From contig JAUXOF010000012.1 of assembly GCA_030682405.1 (NCBI GenBank), positions 1 through 34,474 on the forward strand: a stretch of 34,474 nt of DNA. The letters are read 5' to 3'. The position numbers and the translations under genes are program-made. Origin of the DNA: Thermodesulfovibrionales bacterium (GTDB lineage Bacteria > Nitrospirota > Thermodesulfovibrionia > Thermodesulfovibrionales > JdFR-86). The notes under the pieces are model-generated. The model was not told the origin of the DNA, searched no databases, and was given only the letters and a program-made list of their open reading frames with translations. How positions within the stretch are numbered: the stretch's first letter is position 1; each line of letters begins with the position of its first letter. This document shows positions 32,860 through 34,474 of this stretch, in pieces.

Positions 32860-33561
32860 TTACCGTAATTTTAGCCTTGCGACTTCTGCTTCTATCGCTC
32901 GTAGGACTTCTTCGTTTTTGATTTTCTTTTCTTCACAAAAAATGATGAAACCTTTGCCGCAGAATCGTTCTGTAAATTCCTCAAAACTTGCTTTCATTCT
33001 TTCGCTTACAGAGTAATTCCCGAAGCTCGACTGTGCAGTGATTGGTTTTATTTGAATCCCAAAGGCTCTTTCGCCAACCCATCCAAGATAATCAATATCT
33101 CCAGCATGATCAAGTTCTGGGTCACTTTCTTCAAATTTAATAGCAGGAAACTTTTTAGCAAGATAATCATTAACAACAGATTTTTCTCTTATGAATCCGT
33201 CATAGGTTCTATGGATTGTTACTTCATAAACAAAATCAATGCAATCTTGTAAGGTAATCTGACTAAATGCTTCTGTCCATTCAGGAACAACTACTTGAGT
33301 AATTTTTTCATAAAGCCTTATTCCAAGTTCTGTCAGAATTTCTTTCGTAACCTTTATTGGCGTTTTGGTCTTTGTGAAGGCTTTTTCAAAATAGAAAGAT
33401 TCCCATTCTTCAAATGTTTTCGGCTGACATTCACGCATTAAAGCCATAACAGCATCAACTTTTTTAGGTCTGGTCAAGTGGTAAGTGTTGCTCGTATAGT
33501 TTAACACCTTCTCTTTTTTGCCGAAGGCTTTGGCAACTTTCTTAATTTTGAGTTTGGACAT
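32860..33561 (-). CDS. MjaI-family type II restriction endonuclease
   Basis: The 233-residue protein begins with a basic N-terminus and YTSNTYHLTRPKKVDAVMAL, followed by ECQPKTFEEWESFYF. These resemble the RE_MjaI family, recognised from memory. The likely PD-(D/E)xK catalytic centre is DPELDHAGDIDYLGW followed by FGIQIKP (about residues 140-170), where the Q-x-K replaces E-x-K. MjaI cuts CTAG. The gene overlaps the methyltransferase by 20 bp on the same strand, the normal order for a type II system. The DNA is distinctly AT-rich compared with the core genes, a sign of transfer. Confidence 0.75.
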   Translation of the reverse strand: MSKLKIKKVAKAFGKKEKVLNYTSNTYHLTRPKKVDAVMALMRECQPKTFEEWESFYFEKAFTKTKTPIKVTKEILTELGIRLYEKITQVVVPEWTEAFSQITLQDCIDFVYEVTIHRTYDGFIREKSVVNDYLAKKFPAIKFEESDPELDHAGDIDYLGWVGERAFGIQIKPITAQSSFGNYSVSERMKASFEEFTERFCGKGFIIFCEEKKIKNEEVLRAIEAEVARLKLR

Positions 33562-34474
33562 TGGTGTTTTCTCTTAAAATAGATATAAATTTCTGTTTAT
33601 ACTTAAAGTCAGCTTCAACGGCAACTTGCGCCAAACCGTGTTTGATTAAATGAGCATTTATAAAGGTCTTATTTTTCAAATACAGATAACACAATAAATT
33701 CCCTTCATTATCATATTTGGTGCCGTCATATTTCATAAAGACCTTTTGCCCCTTAAGTTTTTCCGAAAGGAATCGCAAGGCTTCTCCATTTATTTCTTTT
33801 TTTTCTTTTATGCCAATAAGTCTGACTCTCAGGCCGTTATTAAGCACCAGAAGCTCAGGACTAATAATTTGTTTTACGGAGTGGTAGGTCTCGCAGCTAT
33901 AGTCTGAATTGTCTATCCTTGAACCAAACTTTAACTTTTTTGGATCAATCTTTTTGTCAAACTTAACAGGGTCTCTAAAGGTATAAGGCAACTTATTAAT
34001 TTCTTTTTTGAAATCAATGTTAAGTTTTTCTTGTTTAATAATTACCATATCGGCGGCATTCAGTTTAGACTTTATCGCCGGAAGAAATTCTTTATTTATT
34101 TCATAGCCGACTGAGTTCCTATTAAGATTTTCAGCCGCCAAACAAGTCGTGCCGCTTCCCAAAAAAGGGTCGAGGACAATATCTCCGACAAAACTAAACA
34201 TCTTAATCAATCTTCTCGGCAGTTCTTCAGGAAACACCGCAAGGTGCTTGTCCTGTCTTTCGCCGGGGAAATACCAGTGGCCCGAAAAATACTCGTTCCA
34301 TTCCTCGGTAGTCAATTTTGATTTCTCTTTTATCTCTTTACTCACCTTTGGCGGGTCGCCGAGTTTCTTAAAGACAAGTATAAACTCGTAATCGAGCTTT
34401 AGTATTCCGTTTCTCGGATACGGGAATGAACCCATTATAGTTGCCCCGCCGGTTGTGTTGCAGGTTGTCACTTT
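33542..34474 (-). CDS. DNA (N4/N6) methyltransferase with SNase-like C-terminal domain, 5' end outside window
   Basis: Only the last 310 residues are visible; the frame is open to the right edge. They contain MGSFPYPRNGILKLDYEFIL and then motif I DPFLGSGTTCLAAE (SAM binding, about 102-115), the order used when the catalytic motif IV (S/DPPY) comes earlier, here beyond the edge. A C-terminal part (about 215-300) reads VRLIGIKEKKEINGEALRFL, DNEGNLLCYLYL, FINAHLIKHGLAQV, which matches the staphylococcal-nuclease fold. The nuclease glutamate and second arginine (usual D-x-x-GR) are not in place (D-N-E-G-N), so it is probably non-catalytic. It partners the MjaI-type endonuclease. Confidence 0.85.
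   Translation of the reverse strand, partial: KVTTCNTTGGATIMGSFPYPRNGILKLDYEFILVFKKLGDPPKVSKEIKEKSKLTTEEWNEYFSGHWYFPGERQDKHLAVFPEELPRRLIKMFSFVGDIVLDPFLGSGTTCLAAENLNRNSVGYEINKEFLPAIKSKLNAADMVIIKQEKLNIDFKKEINKLPYTFRDPVKFDKKIDPKKLKFGSRIDNSDYSCETYHSVKQIISPELLVLNNGLRVRLIGIKEKKEINGEALRFLSEKLKGQKVFMKYDGTKYDNEGNLLCYLYLKNKTFINAHLIKHGLAQVAVEADFKYKQKFISILRENTNVQTQN

What the first reader, a model, noticed from the sequence alone, without database searches (positions are those of the whole stretch)
33542..34474. DNA methyltransferase fused to a SNase-like domain
The C-terminal ~90 residues of the methyltransferase match the staphylococcal nuclease fold, yet the catalytic Glu and the GR arginine are absent. 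A dead nuclease fold as the tail of a modification enzyme could serve as an accessory DNA-recognition module for the CTAG-type target.
Basis: partly seen in the sequence, partly recalled or inferred. Interest (0 to 1): 0.52.

Follow-up and report, generated by a model that had tools for sequence, protein, structure and literature searches.

The report
Methyltransferase with inactivated nuclease-fold tail
A bacterial DNA-marking enzyme carries a built-in copy of a DNA-cutting fold that has lost its cutting residues, and the same arrangement recurs across many bacteria and some archaea, probably as an extra grip on DNA.

Summary
The ORF at 33542-34471 (minus; its N-terminus lies beyond the contig end) is a beta-class N4/N6 DNA methyltransferase whose last ~115 residues form a staphylococcal-nuclease (SNase) fold: Pfam SNase 36.6 bits, AlphaFold pLDDT mostly 92-97, best solved match Z 16.5 over 114 residues. 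The catalytic site is gone: D21 to E, D40 to K, R87 to N; R35 remains; E43 is ambiguous by one column. SNase controls keep the motifs. The fusion is not peculiar to this window: 94 distinct proteins from many bacterial phyla and archaea share it; none has the full active site. A MjaI-type endonuclease gene lies near 84 of 94. The tail is under purifying selection, accompanies three very divergent endonuclease clades and persists in methyltransferases without an endonuclease. The presumed M.MjaI lacks it, so it is not needed for CTAG recognition as such. Best reading: a non-catalytic DNA clamp working like CcrM's C-terminal domain. CTAG is absent from the window (0 versus 36 expected), consistent with a CTAG target. 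DNA binding by the tail is untested.

The parts
34067..34471 (-). C-terminal half of the methyltransferase domain (residues 1-135 of the visible ORF; SAM motif DPFLGSGTT just below 34177)
   Evidence: Pfam N6_N4_Mtase residues 18-134; best solved relative TTHA0409, 2zie, E 1e-24; N-terminus beyond the contig end
33908..33988 (-). Near-invariant basic linker (residues 162-188, PYTFRDPVKFDKKIDPKKLKFGSRID...)
   Evidence: Mean entropy 0.72 bits over 26 columns, as low as the methyltransferase core (0.76), against 1.22 for the tail; pLDDT under 50 at residues 289-309 of the full-length homologue
33545..33904 (-). SNase-fold tail without the catalytic residues (E206, K222, N258 in place of D21, D40, R87)
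32860..33561 (-). MjaI-type restriction endonuclease, 233 aa, overlapping the methyltransferase end by 20 bases
   Evidence: Pfam RE_MjaI 84.8 bits, cut-off 22.7; PADLOC REase_II 276 bits

Best explanation
A type II restriction-modification pair whose beta-class methyltransferase carries a C-terminal SNase-fold domain that has been disarmed and kept as a non-catalytic DNA grip. Shown: the fusion, the fold (by prediction), loss of at least three catalytic residues family-wide, purifying selection, wide spread, the neighbouring MjaI-type endonuclease. Inferred: the tail binds the DNA backbone near the target (perhaps the non-target strand, perhaps from the other subunit of a dimer, as CcrM's C-terminal domain does), with the conserved basic linker ordering on DNA; the methylated site is CTAG.
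For: Fold and residues. Re-used rather than decaying: replacement residues are themselves conserved (S 87, P 89, E 78, K 88, N 83 of 94 at the D19, G20, D21, D40, R87 columns) and dN/dS of the tail is 0.04-0.21 in the 8 of 12 pairs where dS could be estimated. Charge: tail median +5 (range +1 to +15), linker median +3, methyltransferase part -1. Not an endonuclease dock: the same tail goes with three deeply separated endonuclease clades and stays in six methyltransferases of one family (f6) that have no MjaI-type endonuclease beside them and sit by unrelated, mostly housekeeping genes. Precedent: CcrM's C-terminal domain, on a 10-residue linker that is disordered when unused, binds the non-target strand; deleting it abolishes activity (PMC6787082, passages). 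CTAG: 0 in the window against 36.4 expected.
Against: No binding data. The pocket columns are not significantly more conserved than the rest of the tail (permutation p 0.08). The linker's low pLDDT means the model does not place the tail relative to DNA. CTAG is also depleted in genomes of the phylum without the endonuclease (pooled O/E 0.15 against 0.04; p 0.026, not corrected for 16 palindromes nor for kinship). Active SNases bind DNA and are basic too (recalled), so charge does not discriminate. Untailed relatives exist, so the tail is dispensable in some lineages.
Confidence: 0.6

Rival explanations
1. The tail is a protein-interaction or dimerisation module, for example holding the endonuclease or a second methyltransferase subunit.
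For: Adjacent, often overlapping endonuclease gene in 82 of 94. SNase-derived eTudor domains with mutated catalytic residues serve as binding modules for methylated arginines (PMC7641849, passages).
Against: Three very divergent endonuclease clades and endonuclease-less methyltransferases keep the same tail; endonucleases of the MjaI clade also work with untailed partners. Methyltransferase dimerisation is not excluded.
Confidence: 0.2
2. The tail is a mere structural cap or solubility domain inherited from one ancient fusion, with no specific DNA role.
For: Many of the most conserved tail positions are hydrophobic or glycine, as a folded core alone would give; untailed homologues exist.
Against: The linker and several polar replacement residues are conserved too, which a passive cap does not require.
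Confidence: 0.13
3. The tail is an active nuclease with a rearranged site, so that the methyltransferase also cuts.
For: R35 is R or K in 93 of 94; a glutamate one column after E43 in 34 of 94.
Against: D40 absent in 94 of 94, D21 present in 3, R87 in 2; at most 3 of 5 catalytic residues in any protein even with the offset.
Confidence: 0.03

Closest known systems
CcrM (beta-class N6A methyltransferase with C-terminal DNA-binding domain; PDB 6PBD)
   Same: Beta-class methyltransferase core, flexible linker, separate C-terminal domain
   Different: CcrM's tail is described as SAND/PWWP-like; here it is an SNase fold. DNA binding shown for CcrM, not here
M.MjaI / M.MthZI / M.BfaI CTAG N4C methyltransferases
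   Same: Methyltransferase core of L009 39% identical to the presumed M.MjaI; partner endonuclease of the same Pfam family for MjaI
   Different: 303-364 aa; no tail on the presumed M.MjaI, which is also convergent to its endonuclease
PADLOC MTase_II model PDLC03259 (423 positions)
   Same: Matches the full-length homologue L009 over model positions 5-420, tail included, 597 bits: the family is already catalogued as a type II methyltransferase
   Different: The catalogue entry as shown says nothing about an SNase tail
eTudor / Tudor-SN SNase-like domains
   Same: SNase fold with mutated catalytic residues kept as a binding module
   Different: Eukaryotic, Tudor domain inserted, methylarginine partners

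Membership tests
Beta-class N4/N6 DNA methyltransferase (PF01555) | Pfam match with catalytic [TS]PPY motif before the SAM FxGxG-like motif | tested here: met
   Window half 100 bits; full-length homologue L009 156 bits, TSPPYW then DPFLGSGTT. The window itself lacks motif IV (contig end)
Staphylococcal nuclease (PF00565) | SNase OB fold | tested here: met
   By sequence profile and predicted model:
Staphylococcal nuclease as an active enzyme | Catalytic D21, R35, D40, E43, R87 | tested here: not met
   Window keeps R35 only, E43 ambiguous; D40 0 of 94, R87 2 of 94, D21 3 of 94
MjaI-type type II restriction-modification system | RE_MjaI endonuclease next to the methyltransferase | tested here: met
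   PF09568 84.8 bits at 32860-33561
MjaI-type type II restriction-modification system | CTAG specificity | tested here: inconclusive
   0 CTAG in window against 36.4; CTAG depletion is phylum-wide
CcrM-like methyltransferase with DNA-clamping tail | Tail contacts DNA, in trans | not testable with these tools
   No complex structure or binding assay
CcrM (NCBIfam NF050803) | Equivalog cut-off of 830 bits | tested here: not met
   41.5 bits for the truncated window protein

The most novel reading that the evidence does not exclude
The disarmed SNase pocket, with its conserved S-P-E / K / N replacements, reads a modified or flipped base or the non-target strand at neighbouring sites, making this a methyltransferase that senses methylation state through a converted nuclease site.
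Probability: 0.08. Interest if true: 0.7.

Novelty: new variant of a known kind. Interest (0 to 1): 0.4.

Why it matters
It is a clear bacterial and archaeal case of a nuclease fold disarmed and kept under selection inside a DNA-modifying enzyme, with natural tail-less relatives for comparison. It would add another fold, beside CcrM's, to the C-terminal accessory domains of beta-class methyltransferases. Four searches aimed at the fusion found no paper describing it, though domain libraries detect both halves.

Tried and rejected
Endonuclease docking as the main role: judged unlikely after the endonuclease tree and the endonuclease-less loci. Active nuclease: rejected on residue counts. Offset alignment rescuing the site: only E43 is touched. 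Relatives on viral contigs: no pattern match. Plasmid and phage records: 281 and 344 records match, none covering 80% of the query; the rows shown stop before the tail. Upstream gene conservation: 88 of 110 loci had an upstream ORF by my rule, largest cluster 4, so no third gene. Neighbours of loci without a MjaI endonuclease: no type II endonuclease family called in Pfam or PADLOC. NCBIfam gave no family above its cut-off.

Row handling: the 94 distinct proteins come from 110 loci above 300 bits, identical copies merged, and include the window; genome contigs returned only the best 80 of 168. A1 uses 71 rows and A2 63, after dropping rows 88% or more identical or under 380 residues. In the endonuclease tree only sequences of 165-270 aa were used, and L126 is labelled 'tailed' by default although its methyltransferase lies beyond a contig end. 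In the word counts, samples under 7 kb were dropped. The dN/dS pairs were hand-picked; in 4 of 12 the tail's dS was saturated. The methyltransferase and tail HMMs were built from the family itself, so their scores on members are not independent.

Full report
What is there. The window ends at the end of its contig (G000:C54), so the methyltransferase gene on the minus strand, 34471 down to 33542, is cut at its N-terminus; the GTG start of the listed ORF is an artefact of the cut. The visible 309 residues hold the C-terminal half of a beta-class N4/N6 methyltransferase (Pfam 100 bits) and an SNase domain (36.6 bits, cut-off 21). The next gene, 32860-33561, overlaps by 20 bases and is a MjaI-family endonuclease (84.8 bits).

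Fold. I folded the window's tail (144 residues, 63-row alignment): mean pLDDT 88.5, and block means of 92-97 from residue 31 to 140. All 50 Foldseek rows shown are staphylococcal nuclease variants and the VIA-align best is Z 16.5, rmsd 2.0 A, 114 aligned residues, 20% identity. By sequence profile alone one PDB chain, staphylococcal nuclease, reaches E 0.0026. The full-length homologue L009 (82% identical in the tail) folds as methyltransferase plus SNase fold; its best solved relatives are TTHA0409, a rotifer N4C methyltransferase and CcrM. Two stretches have pLDDT under 50, residues 120-141 and the linker 289-309, so the relative placement of the domains is not determined.

Active site. Residue numbers are those of the 309-aa frame; the tables are one higher. 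Nuclease D19, G20, D21 read S204, P205, E206; R35 is R217; D40 is K222; E43 is K225 with E226 one column on; R87 is N258. Over 94 distinct family members the canonical residue is present at D21 in 3, R35 in 49 (K in 44), D40 in 0, E43 in 5 (34 one column later), R87 in 2; 43 proteins have none of the five, 44 one, 6 two, 1 three, and with the E43 offset allowed at most three. Eight SNase domains from standalone or otherwise fused proteins of related genomes, aligned together with the tails, keep DGDT in 8 of 8, DTPE in 7, YGR in 7 and R35 in 6. Replacement residues are conserved: S 87, P 89, E 78, K 88, N 83 of 94; the pocket as a set is not significantly more conserved than the tail at large (p 0.08). 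A more divergent set of tails (G075, G205, G109, and the split G154) also lacks D21 and D40.

Spread. One scan of 84,980 species genomes gave 168 relatives, of which the best 80 loci were kept, from Nitrospirota, Bacteroidota, Ignavibacteriota, Planctomycetota, Myxococcota, Verrucomicrobiota, Thermotogota, Synergistota, Chlamydiota and archaea among others (titles, tree labels). With the loci and the window this makes 110 loci and 94 distinct proteins. A MjaI-type endonuclease is detected in the loci of 84 of 94, and within 500 bases on the same strand in 82 of 94; two of the ten misses (L074, L081) end at or near the contig end. From the other side, 45 of 395 genomes of the window's phylum hold a MjaI-family endonuclease; comparing coordinates by eye, 41 of the 45 have the tailed methyltransferase (or, in G154, a split one) directly beside it. 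The four others are G305 (endonuclease at a contig end), G327 and G357 (a different, untailed methyltransferase nearby) and G079 (broken endonuclease some distance away).

Natural tail-less cases. In the order of L112's genome, 9 of 36 genomes hold the endonuclease family. In G401, whose contig of 1,664,970 bases fits my recollection of M. jannaschii, and in G409 and G403, the neighbouring methyltransferase is 303-311 residues, has no linker or tail, and runs convergently to the endonuclease; G399 and G398 have untailed copies that look partial or damaged, G407 an untailed fragment at a contig end. G420 and G395 in the same order have the tailed type. In passages of PMC5867850, the CTAG methyltransferases M.MthZI, M.BfaI and M.MjaI are said to be similar in size to HVO_0794, 303-364 residues. 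So the tail is not required to recognise CTAG. In G323 a methyltransferase ends just after the linker and both tail and endonuclease are gone.

Does the tail serve the endonuclease? The endonuclease tree has 96 rows. Tailed partners occur in three groups separated by very long branches (5.6, 3.3 and 1.75 changes per column), and the group nearest to the presumed R.MjaI contains both tailed and untailed partners. Six methyltransferases of one family of the phylum (G099, G132, G148, G152, G309, G381) have complete tails but no MjaI-type endonuclease beside them; their neighbours include malate dehydrogenase, recA, tilS, a radical-SAM protein and other genes not called as endonucleases. None of these six tails has D40 or R87. 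This argues that the tail works for the methyltransferase.

Selection. In 12 hand-picked pairs the tail's dN/dS is 0.04-0.21 in the 8 where dS could be estimated, including 0.15 in an endonuclease-less pair; the methyltransferase part gives 0.02-0.12 in 11.

Target. The window has no CTAG, with 36.4 expected from its shorter words; the enlarged sample of its genome has 0 against 64. Among the 16 palindromic tetranucleotides CTAG shows the smallest p between 26 genomes with and 20 without the endonuclease (pooled O/E 0.04 and 0.15, p 0.026), but the test is uncorrected for multiple words and kinship, and depletion in the 'without' set shows a wider cause. CTAG is therefore likely, not shown.

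Mechanism. CcrM is the nearest working model: its C-terminal domain sits on a linker that is disordered when unused, and in a dimer binds the non-target strand while the other subunit's catalytic domain works on the target strand; its removal abolishes activity (PMC6787082, passages). Here the tail is a different fold. A basic, disarmed nucleic-acid-binding fold with a conserved basic linker could do the same job. The steps beyond predicted fold, residue loss and selection are inference.

Literature. Searches with SNase, staphylococcal or micrococcal nuclease and methyltransferase terms found no description of the fusion (search listings, and passages of PMC7641849); the library lacks most subscription papers. 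PADLOC already has a full-length model covering the tail, so the family is catalogued though the tail is not named there.

Noticed in passing
window 1-34474: GATC is strongly depleted (6 against 96.6 expected; 10 against 157 in the enlarged own-genome sample), which suggests another restriction pressure.
   Followed up: no
L247-L252: Tailed methyltransferases without an endonuclease beside them in six genomes of one family: candidate orphan, possibly regulatory methyltransferases.
   Followed up: partly
L095:4950-5666: The endonuclease slot holds a 239-aa protein with no Pfam or PADLOC match; by eye it has GIY-YIG-like motifs (recalled, untested): possibly another endonuclease partner.
   Followed up: partly
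L153:1434-2786, L154:819-2153: NERD-SNase fusion with a weak Ada zinc-binding match at the C-terminus; SNase motifs kept apart from R35.
   Followed up: no
L155:1351-2256: WYL-SNase fusion with intact SNase motifs.
   Followed up: no
L246:2527-3519: Methyltransferase that ends right after the conserved linker, with tail and endonuclease both missing.
   Followed up: partly
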